NCBI RefSeq assembly: GCF_026151205.1
Contig: NC_087081.1
Span: 15,042,340 to 15,102,339, forward strand
DNA from: Bolinopsis microptera
Taxonomy: Eukaryota > Ctenophora > Tentaculata > Lobata > Bolinopsidae
Reading direction: 5' to 3'
DNA length: 60,000 bases
This document shows positions 20,039-60,000 of this stretch, one piece after another. A program made the position numbers and the translations under genes. The notes below the pieces were generated by a model that saw only the letters and a list, made by a program, of their open reading frames with translations, did no database searches and was not told where the DNA came from. The stretch's first letter is position 1. The number at the start of each line of letters is the position of its first letter.

Positions 20039-20625
20039 TACTTTTATTAGAGCAAGTTGCGAAGTAAAAATGATAATTTGCAAAGTACAATTGATAGTTT
20101 CCTCATTGGGAGGACGGTAAGCCTCCTCCTAAATGGTTTCATTGGTCCTGTTAGGATGTGCCTTGATTATGGGCTGCCACAAGGCTCTGTTCTGTCACCA
20201 ATCCTTTTCAAATTTTATGTGTTCGACATGGAGACCCTGTGTCAACTGTATGAGCAGATTCAGGCCTTCAAATTTGCAGATGATGGAACCATCAAAGTAA
20301 CTGGAAAAGATCTTGAAGAATGTCTCTTTTACCTAGAGCTGGCGATGGGATTCATAGGGGAATGGACTTCTCAATGGAGGATGGTCATAAACTGTAATAT
20401 GAATAAAACAGAAGTTATATGTTTCCAATGCCAAGATGCTTCAGCTGTTCCCAAATCCTTTGATCTATGTGGAAACACCATCTATCTCACAGACAGCAGC
20501 AAAGTACTTGGTATAACACTTGACAGTAAGTTGAACTTCAAGCAGCACAGCCAGGATGTATACAACAAGCTAATCTACTGCTGGGTTTGTCTGAGCAGGT
20601 ATACAAACCGTAACTGGGGGATGAA

Positions 20626-23600
20626 TTTACCTGCATAATGATTCTTTTGTCAAGAAGAATCATTATGCAGGTAAATTAACTGACTGCTCTGGTGATAGTA
20701 AGAAAACGTGGGAAATCATAAACACTATTCGTGGAAAATCCAGGCGTGAAATAAAGCCATGTTTTATCCTTAACGATCAAAAAATAATAAATCGTAGGAT
20801 GATTGCTAATGAATTCAATAAATATTTTCAGTCGATTGCATCCAAACTAAATGAAAATTATTCTGAAGATTATATAACCCTGGATGCAATTCCCTCATTC
20901 TCAAACTTCTTACCTAAAACCTGTGAGTCAAGTATATATCTAAGTGATTGTACACAGTATGAAATTATAGATATTATTAATGAGTTCACAAATGGTAAAT
21001 CTAGTGACATTCCAATTCACGTTATAAAAAAGTCTGCTAGAATAATATCTCCCTTTTTAGCCAAGCACTTTAACCATTGCATGCAACAGGGGATATTCCC
21101 AGATGAACTTAAATTAGGAAAGATAAGTCCCATCTATAAAAAAGATAATCAGGAACTATTTGAAAACTATAGGCCAATATCAACCTTACCAGTATTTGGA
21201 AAAATTTTAGAGAAACTTATTTATAAACGTATGTACAGCTTCCTAATTGCTAAAAGAATCATTTATGAGAACCAATTTGGATTTAGAAAGGGTCACTCAA
21301 CAAGCCACGCACTGAACTTATCTGTTAGCCATATCGAATCACACTTAAAAGACAGGAAACACGTTCTTGGCATTTTCATTGATTTAAGTAAGGCTTTCGA
21401 CACGATATCTCACGAGAAGCTTTTATTCAAATTAAATAATTACGGAATTAGGGGCAACGCACTGAATTTGATAAAAAGTTACCTGTCAAACCGGAGCCAA
21501 TATGTTCACGTCTTAAATGAAAACTCCGATAAACTTCCTGTTGAGTGGGGAGTTCCCCAAGGCTCTGTTCTTGGTCCCTTACTATTCCTCCTGTATATAA
21601 ATGACCTATGCAACGTATCTAATAAAGGCAAGTTTATCTTATTTGCTGACGACACTAACCTATTCGTTTCTGCAGACTCGAAAAAAGACGTTTATAATGT
21701 AGCTAACGATATTCTTTCGTCTATTTCTAGATACATGAAATGTAATCTACTACATATTAACGCTAAGAAGAGCTGTTATATGTATTTCTCCCCAAACAAA
21801 CGTGTAAATGAATCGTCTACATGCAGTACACCCGATGATTTAAATCTCTCCATAGACGGCTCCATAATAATACGTGTTAAAACAACTAAGTTTCTAGGTG
21901 TGCTGATTGATGATAAACTGAACTGGAAACCTCACATCGAATCACTAAATAAGAAACTAAGAAGTGCTTGTGGACGTATTTACCGCATAAAAAACTGTCT
22001 ACCTATAAAACTGCACAAGCAGATATACCACACACTATTTGAATCACACCTTACGTTCGCCATCTCAGTATGGGGTGGTGTCTCTAACCAAGTTATCAAC
22101 CCTGTATTCTTAACACAGAAGAGATGTATTAGAATAATTTTTGGAGATGCAAACTCATACCAAAACAAATTCAAAACATGTGCTCGTTCTAGACCTATTC
22201 AATGTAAAATACTGGGTAAATATGAGTCTAATGTTAATAACTCTGTTAATCCACGTATTAAACCATGTGCAAAGTGTGTCCGCTCTAAATCGGTAGTTCA
22301 TAATAAACTTGTTAGACCCTTATGTTGTCAAAAACTAGGAGCTGAATTCTATTCCAAGGAATCAACCAAACCATTATTTAACAGTCATAAACTCCTTACT
22401 GTTCATAATCTTTACAAACTTCGTACTATAACTGAACTTTTTAAAATAGTGAAATATAGGGTACCCATATCTCTCTACTCTTTACTTAACATGTCTGAAC
22501 TGAGGGATGACCGTCTAATACCACCAAAGCCAAGCCATAACTTTATTTATAAATCTTCTTGGCTTTGGAATCAATTCAAGGACTCCAATCCACAGAATAA
22601 ACCTGACTTTGTGAACACATCCTGTAACTCAATCAAATCAAGGTTAAACCGATCTCTTCTAGATGCCCAAAGCAGGTTCGATAATGAGTGGCATAATGAC
22701 AACTTTAACAGTTTTGGACCATGCTAGATTATTGATAAAAACGTGGAATTTATGTAAACAAATACTCAATTACTTAAATATTGTCGTTTCCGTACGGCGC
22801 TATACGTAATATATGTTAAAAGCGCGCCGCAGCTACTCCCTACCTCAACATTTGCGCGGGTTTCTTAAGCGCGCACGTACGTTTATTCTTGGCCGTTAAT
22901 CAGACCCATGACATAACGCTATAGGTGGCAGTGACTGTAATTTTCTTCAACAATTACTGAATTATCCATCCATAAAGTGATTTACAAAATGACACCTAAA
23001 CCTCGTGTTTCGGTGTTCACTTAAACGGTACTTGGCGGCTGAACTGTGGTGTCTGACGTTTGCAGCTAGATCGGACTCTGCATGATATTGTATTAGCAAA
23101 TTTGTATAGTGTATAATTGTTTAGTGTTTATAATACTCTGCAACCTGGTAGCACGGCTGACACAAAAACAAAATGTTGGCCTGGCTTGTGCATAACCAAG
23201 TAAATAACACGCACTCCGATAAAAGCCGTCTGGAGAAACTCCGCAAAATGTTCATTGTAGTCAACGGGCACAAAGAAGCACTACTAGCAATTGTGTCCTT
23301 TACCCTCCTACATAATTTGAACATTTTTGTGGCTAACTCATTGAACAACATCTGAATTAAAATGTGTCTAGTATTAAAAGATTCAGTAAGTAATTTTTTC
23401 ATGTACGCTGTACACTGTAGTTAGTAAATCAAATCAAACTTTTTCGATCAGCCGCGCGCTGAACCAGTGTTGCACTAGGTAAAAATTGTGTATATTTTGT
23501 TCATTTTTGAGTGTAAATTAATTTATTAATTTATCACAAATTATTTTATTATAATATAACCACTTATGTGAAATGGTTATTTTGACTTTAAATATTTGAA

Positions 23601-24370: not shown

Positions 24371-26815
24371 GTGAAAAAGCCTCCCAAAAATTCTGCCCGT
24401 AAGAAATGGTTCGACCCACAAGTCAACTCCTCACGGCGGAACCTAAATAGGCTAGCAAACCGGCTTGGTAGTAAGCACTGTAACTGTATCCTCAGACGAG
24501 AATACTTTAAGCAACGCAACAAGCATAGCAATTTTGTAAACAGTAAGAAAGTAGCTTTCCTTAAGAAGTTAAATGAAGCTATAGACGAAGGTCACATACT
24601 CGACTGGAAAAAATTTAAACGGCTTAAACAAGAACATGACACTAGCCCCTTACTTGACAAATTTGATTTAGCTAGCTTCCATGACTTCTTTGCATCCCTT
24701 TATAAAAAACCAGACCAGGAGCCAGATCTCACTCACCACAATCACAAACATTACCCTGAACCACCAGATCTGGATATCCTAAATAAGCTCATGTCAGAAT
24801 CTGAAGTGACCTCTGCCATCAAAAATCTCAAAAAAGGTAAAAGTTGCTCAAACGACTTGATATCCAACGAGATGCTTCAGAGCGTAACTCCGCTTTGTCT
24901 CAAAGCCATCCTCAAAAACTTCAACCACTCACTGGTCTCTGGTTACTATCCATGGCACACCAGCATCATTACTCCTATTTACAAGTCTGGCAACCCTTTC
25001 AGCCCGGACAACTACAGAGCAATAGCTGTTGGTAGCTGTATGGGTAAACTATTTTCTAGCATCTTACTTGAGCGTCTCCTGCACTTCAAAAAGCTCTACT
25101 GCCCTGACCCAAAAGAACAACTAGGGTTCTCGAAGGGTGCTCAAACAAATGACCACGTTTTTACCCTTAAGACAGTCATTGACAAATATACCAAGGTTAA
25201 GAAAGCTCGCCTCTATGCATGCTTTGTTGATCTAAGAAAGGCCTTTGACACTGTATGTAGGGACCTCCTTCTGCACAAAATCACATGCCTTGGAATAACT
25301 GGAAACTTCTTCAATTGCCTAAGTGATATGTATAGAAACTCAATAGCTCATATAAAAATCTCCAAACTCTTGTCCCCTAATATTGACATTGGAAAAGGAA
25401 CAGAGCAGGGACACCCCCTATCACCGGACCTTTTTAAAATCTATATCAACGACTTGTCATCTCTCCTGAAATCTGTTGGTGATTATCCTATTCTAGCTGA
25501 CGTCCTAATATCACATCTGCTCTGGGCTGACGATCTTGTCCTACTTGCCCTAAGTCCCAAGGCCTTGCAAGACAATATAAACATCCTATTCGACTTCTGT
25601 AACTCTATGGGCCTTGAAGTAAACATTAAAAAAACCAAGATTCTCATATTCTGCCCTCCTAAAAGAAAACAATCCTATGAAACATTCATTTTGGGAGGCC
25701 AGCCCATCCAACACACCGAAAAATACTGCTATCTTGGCATTATATTCCACAGAAATGGATCTTTTACAGCAGCAAATACTGAACTGAGGGCCAAGGCTCT
25801 CCGTGCTCTCTATGGCCTCAAAGGCAATATCGTCAAAGATGCCCTCTCTCACCGTTCCCTAAACATTCTATTTGACTCTCTAATAAAACCGATACTGCTC
25901 TATGGCTGCCAAATCTTATGTCCTCACTCAAAAACCATGAGATACCTCTCCAAAACAGATAGCAAAGCCAACCCCCAGCATACTCTCAGGTACATCTCAC
26001 AAGACCACTATGAAAGATTCCACCTTAAGTTTATCAAGTGGTCCTTGTCTGTCCATTCAAAAGCATCAAATATAGGCTGCTGGGGCGAAAGTGGGCGCCA
26101 CCCCCTCTTCTTTGAAGCCTGCAAACTTGCAATAGATTTCTATAGTCGTCTTGAAAGCACTGAAAATGAACTTCTCTCCGCTGCATTTCACGAGCAGATT
26201 ATGCTGGGCCTTCCTTGGTACACCAACATCTCTAATCTTCTCACCAAATATAACTTCCCCCACTCATCCTCTTCAAAATCCAAGCTCTCTACCCAAATCA
26301 GTCACAACATGAGGGAAGAATTTGTGGATACCTGGAAATCTGCCAAGGCATCCTCACCTAAATTAGAATTCTACAATCAAATTAAACATGATTTTGAACC
26401 AGAAACATACTTAGGAGTGGTTAAGATCCCCGATGCTCGGAAAAGCTTAACAAGGTTTCGTATTAGCTGCCACAATCTTTACATTGAGAGGGGCCGTTAC
26501 GAAACCCCCCTAGTACCAAGAGAACATCGATGGTGCACTTTTTGCTTTCTCAGCAAGGGGCTTAAGCCTATTGAGGACGAAATTCATGTTCTAACTGACT
26601 GTTTACTCTACTCCTCAGTTAGAGAAAAATTTAACTTCCATCCCAAAAATATTACTGACCTAGCCGGTTTGCTATCCGATAAAACACTAGACCCTACAAA
26701 ATTTACTGCCACAGCAAGAGCAATCCATTCAATTCTCTCTGTGAACGAACATTTTACAGCCTACTATAAGAGCCCAGATTTCCACTCAAATACTGGCCAA
26801 TGCATAATGCTATAG
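24371..26815 (+). CDS. LINE-C reverse transcriptase
   Basis: About 814 codons without a stop. The first codon at 24371 is GTG, and the frame opens about 11 codons earlier, so no true start is kept. RT motifs: NYRAIAVGSCMGKLFSSILL, EQLGFSKGAQTNDHVF, YACFVDLRKAFDTVCRDLLL, GTEQGHPLSPDLFKIYINDL, HLLWADDLVLLAL (WADD catalytic pair) and KYCYLGIIFHRNGSF. A Cys/His-bearing C-terminal part follows, with HRWCTFC and EIHVLTDC, like the C-terminal zinc-knuckle-like region of many LINE proteins. This is a LINE clade different from LINE-B. Confidence 0.88.
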   Translation: MKKPPKNSARKKWFDPQVNSSRRNLNRLANRLGSKHCNCILRREYFKQRNKHSNFVNSKKVAFLKKLNEAIDEGHILDWKKFKRLKQEHDTSPLLDKFDLASFHDFFASLYKKPDQEPDLTHHNHKHYPEPPDLDILNKLMSESEVTSAIKNLKKGKSCSNDLISNEMLQSVTPLCLKAILKNFNHSLVSGYYPWHTSIITPIYKSGNPFSPDNYRAIAVGSCMGKLFSSILLERLLHFKKLYCPDPKEQLGFSKGAQTNDHVFTLKTVIDKYTKVKKARLYACFVDLRKAFDTVCRDLLLHKITCLGITGNFFNCLSDMYRNSIAHIKISKLLSPNIDIGKGTEQGHPLSPDLFKIYINDLSSLLKSVGDYPILADVLISHLLWADDLVLLALSPKALQDNINILFDFCNSMGLEVNIKKTKILIFCPPKRKQSYETFILGGQPIQHTEKYCYLGIIFHRNGSFTAANTELRAKALRALYGLKGNIVKDALSHRSLNILFDSLIKPILLYGCQILCPHSKTMRYLSKTDSKANPQHTLRYISQDHYERFHLKFIKWSLSVHSKASNIGCWGESGRHPLFFEACKLAIDFYSRLESTENELLSAAFHEQIMLGLPWYTNISNLLTKYNFPHSSSSKSKLSTQISHNMREEFVDTWKSAKASSPKLEFYNQIKHDFEPETYLGVVKIPDARKSLTRFRISCHNLYIERGRYETPLVPREHRWCTFCFLSKGLKPIEDEIHVLTDCLLYSSVREKFNFHPKNITDLAGLLSDKTLDPTKFTATARAIHSILSVNEHFTAYYKSPDFHSNTGQCIML

Positions 26816-47700: not shown

Positions 47701-49258
47701 CGGCTGGAAAATATAATTCAAATTTTCGACCATGAAATTTTGCAAGAAGTTTTCCTCAAATCTCTATCTTATACCTAAAATTCTTTCGAATATGATCATA
47801 TTTTAAAACTTTGAAGGCATGCACTTCAATAATTCGGCTGAAACTATGTTTGAGGTTATTATCTGCTCAAGCCACTTTCCTTTTAAACTTTTAACCAGAT
47901 TTTGACTTAACATACCTTTGAAGTATAACACGGTAAAAACCCGCAAGTTTTCACACCCCCATTCCCACAGGTCCAACAATCTACAAGAACATCTGAGAAC
48001 CCACACGGGAAGTCGACCCTACGTGTGCTCATACTGTGACAAAAGTTTCGCGAGATCCTCCATTCTCCACATTCACATGAGAACCCACACCAAAATCAAA
48101 CCCTTCCAGGTAACTGAAAATCTCATTTTCATGGAAACTTGTTTTGAACCGGTATATTTGATAAGGGGCAAGGCTTTTAGAACATCGATTATCCCTAGGT
48201 ACCTAAGCAATAACAAGCTTAGAAAGATGCGTGAACGAGCGGTGATTCTTTCAAGTTCTGCCTATATGCATTCTTGTTAACAAAATATTTGAGCAGATTT
48301 ATGCCATTATATTTAAATATGTGTGACCTTTAAAACACGCCCTCTTCTCCAAATGTGTGGTTTTAAACACACCCTCTTCTCCAAATGTGTGGTTTTAAAC
48401 ACACCCTCTTCTCCAAATGTGTGGTTTTAAACACACCCTCTTCTCCAAATGTGTGGTTTTAAACACACCCTCTTCTCCAAATGTGTGGTTTTAAACACAC
48501 CCTCTTCTCCAAATGTGTGGTTTTAAACACACCCTCTTCTCCAAATGTGTGGTTTTAAACACACCCTCTTCTCCAAATGTGTGGTTTAAAACACACCCTC
48601 TTCTCCAAATGTGTGGTTTTAAACACACCCTCTTCTCCAAATGTGTGGTTTAAAACACACCCTCTTCTCCAAATGTGTGGTTTAAAACACACCCTCTTCT
48701 CCAAATGACGTACTAACCACCCTCCTCTTCACAGTGCAGCGTGTGCCCAGCCGCGTTCAGCCACAGCAACAGTTTACAAGCTCACTTGAGGCGACATACT
48801 GGGGCTAAACCTTACGTCTGCCCGGTCTGCTCCAAAGCTTTCCGACAATCAGGTAATATTTCAACTCCATTTCTGATTTTTATATTTATTGCGTAGGCAG
48901 CAGTTGCAGTAGTTTAGATCTACAAATTATTAGCTAGCTTGCTATTACTAATCGTCATTTGTTATCTTTAAGATTAAATGCGACAGTGATCTATGAAAAG
49001 TGTGACGTCATGCATCAGCATGTGCACTTTGTTACCATGGAAACTAACACCATGTTCATTCAAGGTACCCTCCATCGTCATATACGGACTCACAACAAAA
49101 CCAAACGATCCGACCAACTCAAACCAGACCTGCCTGCATCCTTTCCCGGTAACCATGGTAACTACACCAACTTGGCCCTGAAACTGCTTGGCCAACTGAG
49201 CTTTCCAGAGAACAGGAACAAGGAAAACCTCCCGGAAATGGAACTGAAGCAGATCTAG
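35786..49258 (+). CDS. Multi-exon C2H2 zinc-finger protein, 5' end missing
   Basis: Exons: 35786-35889, 36166-36278, 36401-36500, 36684-36781, 37162-37244, 39350-39429, 39574-39687, 45247-45411, 45856-45918, 46077-46456, 46647-46730, 47971-48109, 48735-48852, 49065-49258 (stop TAG). Phases agree at each junction. After a Ser/Thr/Pro-rich start come about eleven fingers: one degenerate (CRNC...HHC), then CAQCGYR, CGICDKG, CNQCGLV (a C2HC type), [56 protein letters not shown]. The last four are consecutive, with TGxRPY-like linkers ([18 protein letters not shown]), so they should bind DNA as a block. Exon 46077-46456 has four copies of a TSPD..KYG repeat. Most fingers are cut by an intron between their Cys and His pairs. 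It is a probable nuclear transcription factor; I do not recognise the orthologue. The first exon is unknown. Confidence 0.85.
35951..36048. repeat. Imperfect inverted repeat in a zinc-finger intron
   Basis: TTCAAGATGTCAATCTGTCA on the left pairs with TGACAAATTGACATCTTGAA on the right, extending to GAAGTTAATAT / ATATTAACTT around an AT-rich centre. Each arm is about 40 bp. Confidence 0.75.
39033..39079. repeat. CACGTGACAGCTGGGAAT tandem pair
   Basis: Two ~20-bp units, each with CACGTGACAGCTGGGAAT, followed by a third CACGTG. Three E-boxes lie within about 45 bp, next to CAGCTG, another E-box core. Confidence 0.8.
40848..40893. repeat. Tandem ~21-bp repeat with CACGTG
   Basis: ACCTTGTTTGTCACATCACG followed by TG is repeated twice in tandem in the long zinc-finger intron, giving two E-boxes 21 bp apart. 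Confidence 0.8.
41372..41438 (+). CDS. Possible alternative terminal exon of the zinc-finger gene
   Basis: After a pyrimidine-rich CTTTTCTTATACTTTAG acceptor, the phase-0 frame reads [20 protein letters not shown], then V and a stop. Joined to the exon ending ...SADKLQ (39687) it would finish that finger as C-x2-C-x12-H-x3-H. The main-form exon at 45247 (EHMTAKH) finishes the same finger as H-x4-H. If used, this exon gives a short protein lacking the last six fingers. Chance is possible, because the exon is small. Confidence 0.35.
48331..48706. repeat. 32-bp tandem array, about 12 copies
   Basis: The unit is CACCCTCTTCTCCAAATGTG followed by TGGTTTTAAACA, with near-identical copies (some TTTAAAA). 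It ends 28 bp before the zinc-finger exon at 48735, so it includes most of that intron's pyrimidine-rich 3' part. It is a minisatellite. Confidence 0.95.
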
Positions 49259-50110
49259 AGGAAGTTGGCAGGAAAAACCAAGGTTACTGTAACTTTGGTA
49301 ACCGAAACTTTGGTAACTGTAACTTGGTATTACGTGGGACAGCACCGATGTATTTAAAGCTAAGACTAAGAGCAAGGCGATTATTTTGGACGATTTGTAT
49401 CACCAATTTGGGTTATAGTTGTCAGTAATTTAAATTAGGATTATCATTATCAATATCTGTTAATGTTATACGTTTTTACTAATAACAGACAGTGACTGTT
49501 ATAAATCCGTGGTTCCGCGCTCTTATGGTCATGGTGTATTACTGTAAACCTAAACTGGTTATGGTAATTCAGATTTCATTAGAAATAAGCGGATTTATAT
49601 TTCATCGTCAATTTATAATTATACTTTTTTCAACAAATTATAACATTATAACATAATATATCATTTGTACGACTTGTACTATTTTGTAGCTTTCTAAAAG
49701 TTTTTACCGTTTTTAAGATTTTATATTTGACGTGCTTATCTTTCTCATCGATAAGGAGTCAAGTAAAACTTCTTGAAAACTTTATGTTATATATTGAGTG
49801 TTTTGATATTTTGTTATAAATCAATGTTACTTTAATCATTATGTATTTCATTTAATAGCATTCTATTCGCTGGTTTTAATTGTGAGTGCTTAAAATCTCT
49901 CATCAAAAATATGTAAAATATCAAAAGACAGAGCGTAGTGTCCCGAGGATACGCCAACCAGTCTAGTATAAGGGGGGCCCCCCAGTATAATGGTCCATAG
50001 TGAGGATTATCTGTAGGATGAGTAAGGCCAGGGGCTGTTTATATATTTCTGTTATATATTTCAAGTAGGAACGGTGGCGCCAAGCTGTATCAGTGGCGCC
50101 ATTGTTCTAC
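48887..50110 (+). repeat. Segmental duplication, original copy (terminal exon and 3' flank)
   Basis: It matches 58692-60000 base for base over long stretches, from TTATTGCGTAGGCAGCAGTT through the terminal zinc-finger exon and about 850 bp beyond. This copy is in frame with the gene. Small indels separate the copies: here an AAGGGGGGCCCCCC block (49972-49985) and a TAGTGTCCCG insertion (about 49936), both absent from the other copy. Confidence 0.95.
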
Positions 50111-50411: not shown

Positions 50412-51224
50412 GTGACTATGTCTATGGTGGAAGATTGGTCTGAGTTTAAAGCGAGTCGAGAAAACGCTGACTATTCTGGTCCTGTCACTAGTCTACGACC
50501 TCTATGTCTATCAAATGGTGCTCGTAAGATATTATCCATGATTGTACTGAATAGAATTGAAGACAAAGTTGATGCTTTCACTGGTAGCACGCAGGCGGGG
50601 TACAAACATGGCAGAAGTTGTGGTGATCTAGTGTGGGCTGAGCGGATGTTGATATCGGTTGTCACGCGTAAACACTTCCAGTATCACAAGATGGGCATAG
50701 ATATGTCTCGAGCATTTGACACAATCAAACGCCAAACAATACTTGACCTTCTTGTCAAAGCTGGTTGCACAGACGAACTATCTGCTGTATTCGAGAGTGT
50801 TCGAGAGTCTTCTTGGGTCCTTTCAACTTCAAGGTGACAGTCTCTCCGGCAAGCTTTTCACTCTTGTCCTTGCAGGAGCTCTTATAGAACTACGCCATCG
50901 ACTAGCAGAGTCTCCCCCACACATACCCAATCCCCCTATTTCAAAAGAAGGTATGCCACTGGAGTCAGCGTATTCAGATGATTGTAACTTCATGAACGTG
51001 GAAAAAGAATCCTTGGAAGCTATCCTACCAATAGCTAAGGAGGTCTTCAAGGAGTTTAACCTGTTCATTAACACAGAGAAAACAGAATTTACCCATGTTT
51101 TCCTCGCTCCTGTTGGGGAAACAATCCCTGGTCGTGATGATACCATGTTACGTGGAAATGAAGATTGGCGGAAGAGTAAGATTCTTGGGTCATTGTTGTG
51201 TAGTGAAAGTGATATAGCTGCTCG
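50412..51224 (+). pseudogene. LINE-D reverse transcriptase, 5' half, frameshifted
   Basis: RT motifs: LCLSNGARKILSMIVLNRIE, STQAGYKHGRSCGDLVWAER, KMGIDMSRAFDTIKRQTILD; then, in another frame, LQGDSLSGKLFTLVLAGAL, ESAYSDDCNFMN and KILGSLLCSESDIAARC. The frame shifts where TGTTCGAGAG is duplicated (about 50788-50810). The catalytic pair reads YSDD in place of YADD or FADD. The protein stops making sense at about 51225, and its continuation is found at 54080. Confidence 0.75.
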
Positions 51225-52552
51225 ATGCATTGTTTTGTTTGTTTGGGGACCGGTTTTTTATACCCGGCCAATGTTTACAAAATCACAATGCTGGCAAGCA
51301 TTACCGTCGCCCTTATATTCACAATACTATTTACCCCCTATACTATTATATCCCCTTTATTGTTTTCCAGGCATTAAGACTTTTTCGAAAGTAGTTCAGC
51401 AGGTACATTTAAGTTCAAAACATTCTAATTCAATGTTAAAGATGACAGGAATAAGAAATAGTTATATGGAGGTTTTTAAGAAATTTGCGCAAAATACGCG
51501 CCAGCATGTTATACGAAATTAGGTAAAAAACCCAAAATCGCCATATTCAGGTGCCTTAAAAACCATGTTAAAATTGAGTTAGAGATCTGAAACTTTGCAG
51601 GGCGTCTAGACCTTGTCCAAGTCGACAGTAAAAAAATTTCATGTTTCAGGAGTATCGGGAAGTGGGTTTCCTGGAACCCCTGTTTTACAACAGATTGTCG
51701 TGAAGATATATATATATGATAGATATATATATAGACGCTTTTTGCAGTCAATTGTAGCCTACATTTAAGTGTCCGTAGATTCAAAAGAATAAAAGATACA
51801 GTCATTTTGAACCACAGGTTTTAAAGATAATCGTTTATACCTCAGTTTACTTTATATTGAAAAATAATTTATCATCATCATCATCACTTGATGACGTCAT
51901 CAATTTAAGTGTTTTTAAAACTTGATTTTTGACAAAACAACAACTTTTCAAATCGATTTTACACCATTAAAGAGTAATCTTATTCAAAATCTGAGGACAT
52001 TTTCACCTTAGATAATTGTTCAAGCATTCTAAAAATCTACCGGAAAAGTTTCCTACCTTACTCCTTCATAAAGATATTTGCTATTGAAGTTAGTGCTTTT
52101 TTGAAGAATAATTTTATAAAAACACAAAAGTTGTGAATTAGTATTCTCTGGTGTTGGGCTATCCCTTGGGTTGTGGAGCTCAATTTTGCTTCTTAAAGGT
52201 GTAAATTGTGTTATAGGCTAGTTTTAAAGTTAAAAATCGAAAAGTTGCACACGTGGGGACACGCCCAAATTGATTTAAAATAGCTAAAATCACTAAAAAT
52301 TTTGATTTTCATGATTTTTATCAACTTTGGAGTCCCGTTGTGATCCAAGTTCTTTTTGAAATCTTCTGAAACTTTGCATGCTTATCAAACTATATATTAA
52401 ATACCACTATGCAAAAATTTACGGTGATTCAATATTGTATGCGCACGCAACGTCCGCTCAAAGTTTGCACGTGCGAAAGGTGAGAATTTTGCTCATTCGT
52501 GATTTCGAATATATTCTGCTTTCCACGATATTTAAATGGCATTATATATGAA

Positions 52553-53382: not shown

Positions 53383-53713
53383 TATTTGACCAAAACCCAT
53401 AATCATGGGTAGAGTGTACCGCTGCCAGTGTCTCTCTTTTCCAAACAAAAGGAAATGATATTAATTCGAGGAACAGTCCGCTAATGCAAATTGATACCGA
53501 GAATGAAATCGGTCGCTCGCTTTTTCAATTCGATCACGGCTCACGAATTGTAATAAAGCTTATTGATTTGAAAAAGCGAGCGACCGATTTCATTCTCGGT
53601 ATCAATTTGCATTAGCGGACTGTTCCTCGAATTAATATCATTTCCTTTTGTTTGGAAAAGAGAGACACTGGCAGCGGTACACTCTACCCATGATTATGGG
53701 TTTTGGTCAAATA
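53383..53713. repeat. Perfect palindrome with 146-bp arms
   Basis: By eye, the left arm 53383-53528 and right arm 53568-53713 are exact reverse complements over 146 bp, with a 39-bp spacer holding ATTCGATCACGGCTCACGAA. Outer ends are TATTTGACCAAAACCC. There is no coding and no clear target duplication. A transcript would fold into a long perfect double-stranded hairpin. Confidence 0.93.
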
Positions 53714-54634: not shown

Positions 54635-55124
54635 GCTGTCTCAAATCTGTACTGATCACCATTTTAGGATGACTTGATTTCTTTTAGAGGTTTTGAATAT
54701 TTTAATGGTGTAAACAGTTTCTTAATAATAATTGCGAAAACTTCTGAAAAAGAAATCTTGCGATGATTTGATTAAAAATAAGATATGTATTAGGTATGGG
54801 CTTCAATTTTATAAAATTGTAGGATGGATTGGTGAGATGGATGGTTTTATTGCACCAATAGGCGATTATGTCTTGCAGTCTTAATTCTCAGTGCAATAAC
54901 CGTACTCGAATGATCAGGTGACTGTTGACACCAGTTCAAGATAAACAAGCATCTGAGTCTCGGAGGTGATTGGTGATGTTTAGAGAGTGAGGTGCTGGCA
55001 ATCCCATCCGTGAACATATAACTGGTGTCAAGGCTTGTTGGTATAATTAATGGGGCATTGGGGAAGGTAACCCCCAAAGTATATAATGCAAGCCAGATTT
55101 AAGTAAGATATCAAGTATTTCTAC

Positions 55125-55133
55125 TATATAAAT
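55125..55133 (+). promoter_or_regulatory. TATA-like box before the SIX-like gene
   Basis: TATATAAAT lies about 35-40 bp before the ATG at 55167. If used, it would give a very short 5' UTR. Position and sequence only. Confidence 0.4.
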
Positions 55134-55166
55134 CAAATTCAATTGCTACTAATTTCGATTATAACA

Positions 55167-55934
55167 ATGGAATCCTTCATTTACCCCTCTTACCAAGATG
55201 TTACCAGTTTGGACCACCTACCAGAACCGGAACCAGTGAGCCCTTCCTACCTCTCCTGGACCATCCCTCTCTCCTTCAACTTCACTTTCCCTGAGCTGGA
55301 ACTTCCTTCCCAATGTCGAGATAATTCCACTTGCCCCACGAATATTTTCACTGTTCCAGCAATGGAGACATTCACTGGATCTGACACTTCCTCTTCGGAA
55401 GTTCTGACTCATCTTCCAGCGAATCCTGCTGTGGATATGTCTATCCTACCTCCTCTCAAGAGTTCACACAGATCTCCCTGTCCTTCTCCGAGTACTTCAC
55501 CTGCTAGCTCACCGACTTCAACAAACCTGTCCGACCAGGCAATCACTGCACAGTCCCTGTACGATGAACAGCAGTTCGACGAGCTTAAGTCTTACCTCTC
55601 CGTCAGCTACTTCCCTTCCTCAGACCATCCTCACCTCCAGAAACTCTACTACAATTCTCTTTACGAGCTCTATAAGATCTCTTCCGGCAAACGACACCTG
55701 ATTCCCACTACTAAATATCGATTGAGAAAATCAAACCCTCTTCCCTCTACAATTTCGTCCGTGAAGTTCCAGAGCAACAACCACTTTGACGACAATGTCA
55801 AATCCCTACTTCTTTCTGTTTTCAAGAAAGAGAGAACTCCCTCCCAGGAAACTATTCAGATGCTGAGCGAGAACACTGGTCTGACTGAGAGACAGATCAG
55901 AAACTTCTTCAAGAACAAAAGATGCAGAGCTTAA
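55167..55934 (+). CDS. Divergent SIX-class homeobox protein, single exon
   Basis: 255 codons. I chose the ATG at 55167 for its good context (ACAATGG); the frame opens upstream at a TTG. Residues 1-125 are Ser/Pro/Thr-rich and unlike known domains. Residues about 128-195 resemble the second half of the SIX domain: QQFDELKSYLSVSYFPSSDH for the usual F.ELY.IL......HP, then HPHLQKLYYNSLYELYKIS and KYRLRKSNPLPSTI for KYR.RRK.PLP.TI. Residues 201-255 are a homeodomain ending at helix 3: LTERQIRNFFKNKRCRA. The SIX-type Lys50 and the Asn51 are kept, but the nearly invariant Trp48 is Phe, and the protein stops right after helix 3. The first half of the SIX domain is missing or unrecognisable. SIX proteins are nuclear DNA-binding factors. 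The lack of introns suggests a retrocopy; the open frame and flanking signals suggest it is used. Confidence 0.8.
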   Translation: MESFIYPSYQDVTSLDHLPEPEPVSPSYLSWTIPLSFNFTFPELELPSQCRDNSTCPTNIFTVPAMETFTGSDTSSSEVLTHLPANPAVDMSILPPLKSSHRSPCPSPSTSPASSPTSTNLSDQAITAQSLYDEQQFDELKSYLSVSYFPSSDHPHLQKLYYNSLYELYKISSGKRHLIPTTKYRLRKSNPLPSTISSVKFQSNNHFDDNVKSLLLSVFKKERTPSQETIQMLSENTGLTERQIRNFFKNKRCRA

Positions 55935-55978
55935 ATGATTATTTGATATTTTATTGTGTGAATATTACAATTTAAAAA

Positions 55979-55984
55979 AATAAA
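55979..55984 (+). terminator. AATAAA polyadenylation signal
   Basis: AATAAA 45 bp after the stop codon of the SIX-like gene, in an A-rich run. It is the right distance for a compact 3' UTR. Confidence 0.6.
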
Positions 55985-55994
55985 TTTATGAAAT

Positions 55995-58260
55995 CATTTT
56001 GTCCCATTCTCTGTCAGTTTTTGAAGATGAAATTTCCATGACCAAAATTTTACAGTTTTGACTGGATTTTTCACCCACATTCCGCAACCATTTAGTAGTT
56101 CAACTATAATAGATGTTAAGTGACACGATTGATGTGCTAGAAGTTTGATTGAGGTCGGAGGAAGCTCACAGCAGAAAGCTTTATAACAAACAAATTGAAA
56201 AATCATATTGTCCCATTCTCTGTCCCATTTTCAGTTTTTGAAGATGAAATTTACAGGACCAAAATTTTACAGTTTTGACTGAATTTCTCACCCGCAACCA
56301 ATTATTCAGTCAACTATAAATGTTTTTGGTTTTGACGGATGTTACTCGTCTAAATTTCTTCGAAGTAGCGCGCGCCGCTTTCTTCTCGCGCGCCGGGCCA
56401 GATCATTAACAATGGTCAATAAATGTTAAGTGACACGATTGAGGTGCTAGAAGTTTGATTGTGGTCGGAGGAAGCTCACAGCAGAAAACTTAACAAAACG
56501 AAAATTCATATTTCCAATTTCTGTCCCATTTTCAAATATGAAAATTTCTAAACACAAATTTGACAGATTGGATGAAATTTTTGCCCAGAGACCAATTAGT
56601 CAGTCAATTGATTATGGTATGAAACCAAATTGAGGTGCTAGAAGTTTGATTGTGGTCGGAGGAAGCTCACAGCAGAAAGCTTAAAAAACGAAAATTCATA
56701 TTTTCCAATTTCTGTCCCATTTTCAAATATGAAAATTTCTGTCCCATTTTCAAATTTGACAGATTGGATCAAACTTTTGCCCAGAGACCAATAAGTCAGT
56801 TTATTAATGATGGTATGAAACGAAATTGAGGCACTGGAAGTCAAAATGCAGCGGAAAATTGAAAAATCATATTTTCAGTTTTTGAAGATGAAATTTCCAG
56901 GACCAAAATTGTACAGTTTTGACTGAATTTCTCACCCGCAACCAATTAGTCGTTCAACTTAAGATGTAAAGTGACACGATTGAGGTGCTAGAAGTTTGAT
57001 CGAGGTCGGAGGAAGCTCACAGCAGAAAGCTTAACAAAACGAAAATTCATATTTTCCAATTTCTGTCCCATTTTCAAATATGAAAATTTCTGTCCCATTT
57101 TCAAATTTGACAGATTGGATCAAACTTTTGCCCAGAGACCAATAAGTCAGTTTATTAATGATGGTATGAAACGAAATTGAGGCACTGGAAGTCAAAATGC
57201 AGCGGAAAATTGAAAAATCATATTTTCAGTTTTTGAAGATGAAATTTCCAGGACCAAAATTGTACAGTTTTGACTGAATTTCTCACCCGCAACCAATTAG
57301 TCGTTCAACTTAAGATGTAAAGTGACACGATTGAGGTGCTAGAAGTTTGATCGAGGTCGGAGGAAGCTCACAGCAGAAAGCTTAACAAAACGAAAATTCA
57401 TATTTTCCAATTTCTGTCCCATTTTCAAATATGAAAATTTCTGAACACAAATTTGACAGATTGGATGAAATTTTTGCCCAGAGACCAATTAGTCAGTCAA
57501 TTAATGATGGTATGAAACCAAATTGAGGTACTGGAAGTCAAAATGCCGCAGAAAATTGAAAAATAATATTGTCCCATTTTCAGTTTTTGAAGATGAAATT
57601 TCCAGGACCAAAATTTTACAGTTTTGACTGAATTTCTCACCCGCAACCAATTAGTCAGTTCAAATATGAAAATTTCTGTCCCATTTTCAAATTTGACAGA
57701 TTGGATCAAAATTTTGCCCAGAGACCAATAAGTCAGTTTATTAATGATGGTATGAAACGAAATTGAGGCACTGGAAGTCAAAATGCAGCGGAAAATTGAA
57801 AAATTATACTGTCCCATTCCCAACACAATCATTCTCTGCCATAGACCACAACTAGCCGATCAAAGACAAAATCTCCACGGATGAAAGGCTACTGTGTAGT
57901 AAATCTCCGTCAATAAGGTCGTCACTCGTCAGCCTTTCGAGTGTATTAGCTTGTGATATATCGCCACATCTTTTACAGTTTTGACTGAATTTCTCACCAG
58001 CAACCAATTAGTCGGTCAACTATAAATGTTAAGTGACACGATTAAGGTGCTAGAAGTTTGATTGAGGTCGGAGGATGCTCACAGCAGAGAGCTTAACAAA
58101 ACGAAAATTCATATTTTCCAACTAGCCGATCGAAGACGAAATCTCCACGGATGAAAGACTACTGTGTAGTATGTAGTAAATCTCCGTCAATAAGGTCGTC
58201 ACTCGTCAGCCTTAGAGTGTATTAGCTTGTGATATATCGCCACATCTTTCAAATGCAAAA
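55995..58260. repeat. Complex satellite, including a 351-bp tandem duplication
   Basis: Many copies of blocks such as GAGGTGCTAGAAGTTTGAT, GTCGGAGGAAGCTCACAGCA, AATTTCTGTCCCATTTTCA and CAGTTTTTGAAGATGAAATT in varied order. The stretches starting near 56824 and 57175 are nearly identical at a 351-bp offset. A ~120-bp block with AATCTCCACGGATGAAAG occurs at about 57855-57975 and again at 58130-58260. Minus-strand open frames across it follow from the repeats. No gene seen. Confidence 0.88.
56337..56415. mobile_element. Short GC-rich dispersed element, copy 3, inside the satellite
   Basis: It shares GACGGATGTTACTCGTCT, GAAGTAGCGCGCGCCG, CGCGCGCCGGGCCAGA and CATTAACAATGGTCAAT with the copy at 28825, lacking the middle part. 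TAAATGTT lies on both sides (about 56308 and 56422). Sister satellite units (58022-58034) read CTATAAATGTTAAGTG without the element, giving an empty-site comparison. Confidence 0.75.
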
Positions 58261-58691: not shown

Positions 58692-60000
58692 ATTGCGTAG
58701 GCAGCAGTTGCTGTTTAGATCTACAAATTATTAGCTAGCTTGCTATTACTAATCGTCATTTGTTATCTTTAAGATTAAATGCGACAGTGATCTATGAAAA
58801 GTGTGACGTCATGCATCAGCATGTGCACTTTCTTACCATGGAAACTAACACCATGTTCATTCAAGGTACCCTCCATCGTCATATACGGACTCACAACAAA
58901 ACCAAACGATCCGACCAACTCAAACCAGACCTGCCTGCATCCTTTGCTGGTAACCATGTTGATTCACGATGTCAATCCTTCGCAGCTCGGTGAGGCACAG
59001 TGGTGCATCTCGCCGATCTACCGAAGTGGTTGCGAGAAGCATTATTTGATGCGCGCGCGACCCAGTAGTGCATCGCGCTACAAGTAACCATGGTAACTAC
59101 ACCAACTTGGCCCTGAAACTGCTTGGCCAACTGAGCTTTCCAGAGAACAGGAACAAGGAAAACCTCCCGGAAATGGAACTGAAGCAGATCTAGAGGAAGT
59201 TGGCAGGAAAAACCAAGGTTACTGTAACTTTGGTAACTGAAACTTTGGTAACTGTAACTTGGTATTACGTGGGACAGCACCGATGTATTTAAAGCTAAGA
59301 CTAAGAGCAAGGCGATTATTTTGGACGATTTGTATCACCAATTAGGGTTATAGTTGTCAGTAATTTAAATTAGGATTATCTTTATCAATATCTGTTAATG
59401 TTATACGTTTTTACTAATAACAGACAGCGACTGTTACAAATCCGTGGTTCCGCGCTCTTATGGTCATGGTGTATTACTGTAAACCTAAACTGGTTATGGT
59501 AATTCAGATTTCATTACAAATAAGCGGATTTATATTTCATCGTCAATTTATAATTATACTTTTTTCAACAAATTATAACATTATAACATATATCATTTGT
59601 ACGACTTGTACTATTTTGTAGCTTTCTAAAAGTTTTTACCGTTTTTAAGATTTTATATTTGACGTGCTTATCTTTCTCATCGATAAGGAGTCAAGTAAAA
59701 CTTCTTGAAAACTTTATGTTATATATTGAGTGTTTTGATATTTTGTTATAAATCAATGTTACTTTAATCATTATGTATTTCATTTAATAGCATTCTATTC
59801 GCTGGTTTTAATTGTGAGTGCTTAAAATCTCTCATCAAAAATATGTAAAATCTCAAAAGACAGAGCGAGGATACGCCAACCAGTCTAGTATAATGGTCCA
59901 TAGTGAGGATTATCTGTAGGATGAGTAAGGCCAGGGGCTGTTTATATATTTCTGTTATATATTTATGGCGCCAAGCTGTATCAGTGGCGCCATTGTTCTA
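58692..60000 (+). pseudogene. Duplicate of the zinc-finger terminal exon and 3' flank
   Basis: A second, same-direction copy of 48887-50110, cut by the window end. The acceptor and first part ([15 protein letters not shown], from about 58866) are intact. A 125-bp insertion at 58959-59083 changes the frame, so the exon would end early (SFAGNHVDSRCQSFAAR, then stop). Beyond it the original sequence resumes, including the old stop. It could act as an alternative last exon with a shorter tail; otherwise it is dead. Confidence 0.85.
58959..59083. mobile_element. 125-bp insertion with 9-bp TSD
   Basis: GTAACCATG stands on both sides (58950-58958 and 59084-59092) but occurs once at this point in the original at 49149. 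The ends TTGATTCACGATG and (inverted) TTGTAGCGCGATG agree at 9 of 13 bases, a weak terminal inverted repeat. A 9-bp duplication would suit a Mutator-like MITE. Confidence 0.7.

What the first reader, a model, noticed from the sequence alone, without database searches (positions are those of the whole stretch)
55167..55934. Intronless, very divergent SIX-like homeobox gene with Trp48 to Phe
Seen: a 255-codon frame whose second half aligns with the end of the SIX domain and a homeodomain that stops right after helix 3. Lys50 and Asn51 remain, but Trp48 is Phe. Known: W48 is nearly invariant in homeodomains, and SIX genes normally have a complete SIX domain for partner (EYA) contact. Inference: a lineage-specific, fast-evolving SIX paralogue, perhaps born by retrocopying, with altered partner and DNA binding.
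Basis: partly seen in the sequence, partly recalled or inferred. Interest (0 to 1): 0.78.

Follow-up and report, generated by a model that had tools for sequence, protein, structure and literature searches.

The report
Comb-jelly truncated SIX homeobox gene
This is a real, selected, apparently single-exon homeobox gene from a comb jelly, one of a small family already described in another comb jelly in 2010, and the new detail is that the part of the protein which in relatives grips the partner EYA could not be found.

Summary
55167-55934 encodes 255 aa with a homeodomain (Pfam 1.3e-10) and only the last 58% of the SIX domain (5.9e-10, profile 48-113 of 113). Position 48 is Phe, Lys50 and Asn51 are kept, and the stop is homeodomain codon 57. 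The genome is a ctenophore, probably Bolinopsis microptera. Ryan et al. 2010 (PMC2959044, passages) described MlSIX59a-e of Mnemiopsis with the same signature, so this is a new member of a known group. Here five copies share 65-100% identity, one 5.6 kb downstream, plus a distant sixth. SD-HD is under purifying selection (dN/dS 0.10-0.16 in five pairs, a sixth saturated). Retrocopying is not supported for the copies: the tandem one includes 436 bp upstream of the ATG, and 12 of 16 SIX genes tested share a TATA box at -79 to -101. Not mentioned in the passages read: the SIX-domain match lacks its first 34-52 positions, which hold the EYA-binding helix, in 15 of 17 single-frame SIX genes, although one EYA gene is present. 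EYA-independence is inferred; no expression data.

The parts
55167..55934 (+). apparently single-exon SIX-class homeobox gene, 255 codons plus stop
   Evidence: no stop inside any of the five closest genomic copies
55167..55538 (+). codons 1-124: Pro/Ser/Thr-rich N-terminal region, low-confidence and without helix in the model, under weaker selection (dN/dS 0.21-0.46); SIX-domain helices 1-2 not found here
55548..55748 (+). partial SIX domain (residues 128-194 = Pfam SIX1_SD positions 48-113 of 113)
55764..55931 (+). homeodomain residues 1-56, ending directly before the stop codon
   Evidence: helices 209-221, 227-237, 241-254, block pLDDT 92-94 over residues 211-250
55905..55907 (+). codon 247 (TTC) = Phe at homeodomain position 48
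55080..55085 (+). TATA-like box at -87 from the ATG, position shared with most paralogues tested (a second one lies at -42)
55979..55984 (+). AATAAA polyadenylation-like signal 44 nt after the stop
54731..55992 (+). DNA unit duplicated 5.6 kb downstream, just outside the window (60362-61613 in window numbering), 97.6% identical; gives paralogue L002

Best explanation
It is a functional gene of the ctenophore SIX59 group: a DNA-binding protein with a normal homeodomain fold and SIX1-like residues at 47, 50 and 51, whose SIX domain lacks recognisable helices 1-2 and with them the EYA-binding helix. I think it most likely acts as a sequence-specific transcription factor at SIX-like sites without EYA, with its disordered Pro/Ser-rich N-terminus making contacts of its own. 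Shown by computation: homology, family signature, selection among paralogues, limits of the detectable domains, presence of one EYA gene, DNA-level tandem duplication. Inferred: single-exon transcript, expression, DNA binding, loss of EYA binding, regulatory sign. About 0.9 for the identity as a SIX59-group gene, about 0.5-0.6 for EYA-independence.
For: Pfam and SIX1 matches. The signature equals that of MlSIX59a-e: no W48, homeobox truncated at codon 57, SIX domain upstream (PMC2959044, passages). Five copies at 65-100% and a sixth at 38%, all six F48 and ending at homeodomain residue 56. SD-HD dN/dS 0.10-0.16 in 5 of 6 pairs, the sixth with saturated dS, and 0 of 1000 bootstraps at dN>=dS in each of the 6; codons 1-124 0.21-0.46. 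SIX1_SD matches start at profile 35-53 in 15 of 17 single-frame SIX genes and at 1 or 12 in 2. The profile-profile alignment with the two full-domain genes begins at residue 131; no helix is predicted before residue 128. One EYA match, 2.6e-99. V17E in the first SD helix of SIX1 is reported to abolish EYA interaction (PMC7063838, passages). MlSIX59b is listed under 'Gene isolation via RACE PCR', which suggests a transcript in Mnemiopsis.
Against: No transcript or protein data for this gene. Loss of EYA binding rests on an undetected helix only; the same source reports that R110W in the sixth SD helix also weakens EYA binding, and its own V17E cells still showed some nuclear Eya1. Helices 1-2 could be present but too divergent to detect: the model came from one sequence with mean pLDDT 49. 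The MlSIX59 sequences could not be aligned here. L001 and L002 differ by 8 nonsynonymous and 2 synonymous changes, so recent constraint on the N-terminus is not shown. Ryan et al. found only six Mnemiopsis homeodomains without W48 against 11 of 21 SIX loci here, so the two genomes or surveys do not match in full.
Confidence: 0.7

Rival explanations
1. Dominant-negative or repressor version: binds SIX sites, cannot recruit EYA, and so blocks the full-length SIX proteins.
For: Helices 1-2 not found while residues 47, 50 and 51 are kept; EYA and full-domain SIX genes are present in the same genome.
Against: The N-terminal region is under selection of its own (dN/dS 0.21-0.46), which suggests a further role; residue 54 differs from SIX1 (Cys or Ser against Gln), so the sites may not be the same.
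Confidence: 0.25
2. Retrocopy: a processed SIX mRNA reinserted, giving an intronless gene.
For: One open frame, a short gene, a polyadenylation-like signal just downstream; a conventional paralogue, L022, has its SIX domain and homeobox split.
Against: The tandem copy carries 436 bp upstream of the ATG; a TATA box at a similar position in 12 of 16 genes tested, 0.65 expected (range chosen). The full-domain genes L014 and L018 also have SD and homeobox in one frame, so one frame is not peculiar to this group. An ancient founding retrocopy cannot be excluded.
Confidence: 0.1
3. Decaying pseudogene or chance frame.
For: A fast-changing N-terminus; part of a domain and W48 missing.
Against: No stop in any of the five closest copies; SD-HD dN below dS in 6 of 6 pairs, 0 of 1000 bootstraps each; no difference between L001 and L002 in the 131 SD-HD codons.
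Confidence: 0.03
4. L001 and L002 are two alleles misassembled as a tandem pair.
For: 97.6% identity over 1262 columns.
Against: The shared unit is short and the DNA on both sides of it differs.
Confidence: 0.1

Closest known systems
MlSIX59a-e of Mnemiopsis leidyi (Ryan et al. 2010, PMC2959044; passages read)
   Same: SINE-class homeodomain without Trp48, truncated at codon 57 at the end of the gene prediction, SIX domain upstream, five paralogues in the genome
   Different: Another ctenophore genome, probably Bolinopsis microptera; here two copies are in tandem 5.6 kb apart; identity to MlSIX59 and the residue it has at position 48 could not be checked
Human SIX1 (PDB 4egc)
   Same: SIX domain from about helix 3 on; homeodomain residues N47, K50, N51
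   Different: SIX-domain helices 1-2 not found, W48F, residue 54 changed, no region after the homeodomain, QSNN at homeodomain positions 3-6
Zhx/Homez homeodomains
   Same: Ryan et al. report that MlSIX59 homeodomains group with them in their superfamily tree
   Different: The SIX domain places the window gene in the SINE class; Ryan et al. point to divergence; no Zhx sequence was compared here

Membership tests
SINE/SIX class | homeodomain with Lys50 | tested here: met
   K50 and N51 in helix 3; Pfam Homeodomain 1.3e-10
SINE/SIX class | SIX domain directly before the homeodomain | tested here: met
   SIX1_SD 5.9e-10, over the curated cut-off
Conventional SIX protein with a complete SIX domain | all of the SIX domain | tested here: not met
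   only SIX1_SD profile positions 48-113 of 113
SIX1/2 family | ETSY at homeodomain positions 3-6 (as stated in PMC2959044) | tested here: not met
   QSNN
Ctenophore SIX59 group | no Trp at position 48 | tested here: met
   Phe48 in 6 of 6 genes L001-L006; for MlSIX59a-e
Ctenophore SIX59 group | homeobox ends at codon 57 at the gene's end | tested here: met
   last residue is homeodomain position 56 in 6 of 6 genes L001-L006
Ctenophore SIX59 group | sequence clusters with MlSIX59a-e | not testable with these tools
   no Mnemiopsis SIX sequence was at hand
EYA-binding SIX protein | first SIX-domain helix, site of V17E in SIX1 | tested here: not met
   not found by Pfam, profile comparison or model; role of the helix from PMC7063838
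EYA-binding SIX protein | physical binding to EYA | not testable with these tools
   -
Processed retrocopy (of a sister gene) | copy lacks the parent's upstream DNA | tested here: not met
   436 bp upstream of the ATG shared with L002; TATA position shared by most paralogues tested

The most novel reading that the evidence does not exclude
Ctenophores evolved a separate class of SIX regulators that dropped the EYA-binding part of the SIX domain: here 16 of 22 SIX loci by the start of the profile match (15 single-frame genes and L025; for the split loci L021 and L024 I judged helices 1-2 present by eye). The class would run mostly from short TATA-box genes, has in part given up Trp48, and would work as an EYA-free network, perhaps in rapid early cleavage as DUX genes do in mammals (an analogy recalled, not tested).
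Probability: 0.25. Interest if true: 0.6.

Novelty: new member of a known kind. Interest (0 to 1): 0.33.

Why it matters
[quoted passage not shown] A genome that holds one EYA gene and mostly SIX proteins without a recognisable EYA-binding helix would show SIX uncoupled from EYA on a large scale, and would caution against counting ctenophore SIX genes as members of that network. The W48 loss itself has been in print since 2010.

Tried and rejected
Retrocopy birth as the mode of copying: not supported, given the shared upstream DNA and the TATA box. Pseudogene: rejected on dN/dS. A single unique gene: rejected by the genome search. Two independent losses of W48 (L001-L008 and L015-L017): the tree needs 2 changes, but one loss is not rejected with position 48 masked (p-AU 0.059), so it is not claimed. 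The tree left out L002, L013 and L017, which are identical or nearly identical to kept rows; both trees left out L021-L024, for which no whole SD-HD frame was at hand. L018 and L019 were flagged as long branches (L018) and the only outgroup is a SIX1 fragment.

A hidden SIX helix 2 in the N-terminal motif SWTIPLSF (L006: NWSLPPSF; compare FLWSLP of L014) was considered by eye; the profile comparison did not align it, so it stays open. Fold search with the single-sequence model gave homeodomain chains in the 50 listed rows, none at E <= 0.001, DUX4 first and 4egc at rank 14; it adds little. Paper searches on W48, on zygotic activation in Mnemiopsis and on ctenophore SIX genes showed nothing on SIX59 in their listings; only listings were seen for most of these papers. 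Beroe ovata (PMC11184263, passages) reports an aboral-organ 'SIX homeobox 1', whose relation to SIX59 is unknown. For the species, a first receptor frame (L009) gave only non-ctenophore receptors at E <= 1e-60; the second (L010) gave ML032222a first.

Full report
Observation. The frame 55167-55934 reads 255 codons from ATG to TAA. Pfam finds a homeodomain (1.3e-10) and the SIX domain SIX1_SD (5.9e-10), the latter only from profile position 48 to 113. Among solved structures the best match is human SIX1 (4egc, 5.2e-9), aligned from query residue 131 on. Helix 3 is IRNFFKNKRCRA: Phe48, Phe49, Lys50, Asn51, and the stop falls on homeodomain codon 57.

Source organism. The window is C10:15042340-15102339 of a genome of 264,652,675 bases in 232 contigs. 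One glutamate-receptor frame of this genome (L010) has as its best solved relatives the ML032222a receptors (6.3e-62), then 4zdm (4.4e-54), then kainate receptors from 5.1e-47; that ML032222a is from Mnemiopsis is recalled, and fits the ML gene names in PMC6278862. Another receptor frame (L009) gave kainate-type and other receptors only at E <= 1e-60. Bolinopsis microptera is listed with 265 Mb but 346 scaffolds (PMC11797021, passages), and with 13 chromosome-scale scaffolds (PMC10232365, passages). I take it as a ctenophore with high confidence and as B. microptera with moderate confidence.

Family in the genome. A protein search gives 18 matches from 28 candidates. The best five are the window gene, a copy 5.6 kb downstream at 97%, and copies at 82, 78 and 65%; a sixth follows at 38%. 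The SIX-domain search gives 24 matches from 36 candidates, which I count as 22 loci. The FKN[KR]R motif of helix 3 was found in 21 of these 22 (not in the stretch fetched for L023). Position 48 is Trp in 10, Phe in 9 (L001-L006, L015-L017) and Tyr in 2 (L007, L008). L001-L006 all end one residue after position 55.

Known in print. Ryan et al. 2010 (PMC2959044; 12 of 19 passages shown) list 18 SINE-class homeodomains in Mnemiopsis. [quoted passage not shown] 17 of the 18 have a SIX domain upstream. The passages shown do not say that the SIX domain is partial. MlSIX59b is listed under isolation by RACE PCR, which suggests a transcript. A full-text search for 'SIX59' returned 3 papers, of which this one alone concerns the gene, to judge by titles. 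Fortunato et al. (PMC4083861, passages) note that many ctenophore SIX genes lie on long branches. So the W48 loss, the truncation and the expansion are known; the window gene is a member in another species. Ryan et al. report only six Mnemiopsis homeodomains without W48, against 11 of 21 SIX loci here, so the species or the surveys differ.

Selection. Codon-bootstrap dN/dS over SD-HD (131 codons) among L001, L003, L004 and L005 is 0.10-0.16 in five of six pairs; in the sixth (L001-L005) dS is saturated and the printed 0.04 rests on an arbitrary cap. In each of the six, 0 of 1000 bootstraps reach dN>=dS. For codons 1-124 it is 0.21-0.46, with 0-2 of 1000. L002, nearly identical to L001, and L006, mostly saturated, were left out of this test; their pairwise values are. 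L001 and L002 differ at 10 coding sites, all in codons 54-101, 8 nonsynonymous and 2 synonymous, and at none in SD-HD. These are comparisons of paralogues by a simple counting method, not of species.

Origin of the copies. The L001-L002 unit is 54731-55992 against 60362-61613, 1262 columns at 97.6%. It includes 436 bp upstream of the ATG. A TATAWA box lies between -79 and -101 of the ATG in 12 of 16 SIX genes tested, against 0.65 expected from shuffles; the four without it there are L006, L008, L014 and L018. L007 and the split loci L021-L025 were not tested. The range was chosen after seeing the positions, and several of the 12 are close copies of each other, so they are not independent. This points to DNA-level duplication with the promoter. 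One open frame over SD and homeobox is also found in the full-domain genes L014 and L018, whereas L022 is split.

What is missing. In 15 of 17 single-frame SIX genes the SIX1_SD match starts at profile position 35-53; in L014 it starts at 1 and in L018 at 12. L007 has no ATG close upstream in its frame and may have another exon. Among the split loci, L022 and L023 have matches from positions 4 and 10, L025 from 40, L024 from 60 and L021 from 67. In L021 and L024 I see helix 1-2-like stretches by eye in nearby frames, untested. The partial-domain genes, L025 included, form one group with support 99/99 in the 19-row tree, falling to 94/99 in the 16-row tree with position 48 masked. L001-L008 (L002 absent from the second tree) group at 100/99 in both. 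The profile comparison of L001-L006 with L014+L018 aligns from residue 131 on, and the single-sequence model shows no helix before 128, while block pLDDT is 92-94 over residues 211-250 of the homeodomain. The mean pLDDT is only 49, so the model speaks for the homeodomain fold and little else.

Mechanism. In SIX1, V17E in the first helix of the SIX domain is reported to abolish EYA interaction; R110W in the sixth helix is reported to weaken it, and the authors' own V17E cells showed Eya1 in both cytoplasm and nucleus (PMC7063838, passages). The genome has one EYA domain match (2.6e-99). A protein with a normal homeodomain and without that helix would bind DNA but not EYA in the known way. That step is inference. 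Phe for Trp at 48 keeps an aromatic side chain in the core position (recalled), which fits the confident helices. N47, K50 and N51 match SIX1; residue 54 does not.

Verdict. A sound gene of a known, odd ctenophore group.

Noticed in passing
window 56438-57663: Tandem satellite with 191- and 351-bp periods about 0.5 kb downstream of the SIX gene; related repeats begin near 55971.
   Followed up: partly
window 53383-53713: Long hairpin: two 152-nt arms, 99% complementary, 27 nt apart, about 1.45 kb upstream of the gene.
   Followed up: no
window 20799-22727 and 24371-26815: Two long frames (642 and 814 aa) that look by eye like retrotransposon reverse transcriptases; further fragments near 20057-20638 and 50412-51522.
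   Followed up: no
window 48329-48707: 11.8 copies of a 32-bp unit, 98% matches.
   Followed up: no
window 50000-50061 and 59903-59964: 62-bp exact repeat pair 9.9 kb apart, cut by the start of the searched stretch.
   Followed up: no
L015, L016, L017 (C6:9842889-9850067): Three nearly identical F48 SIX genes within 7.2 kb, one in opposite orientation.
   Followed up: partly
L012 and L013 (C9, 7.5 Mb apart): Two nearly identical SIX genes with the same 130 bp upstream sequence, far apart on one contig.
   Followed up: no
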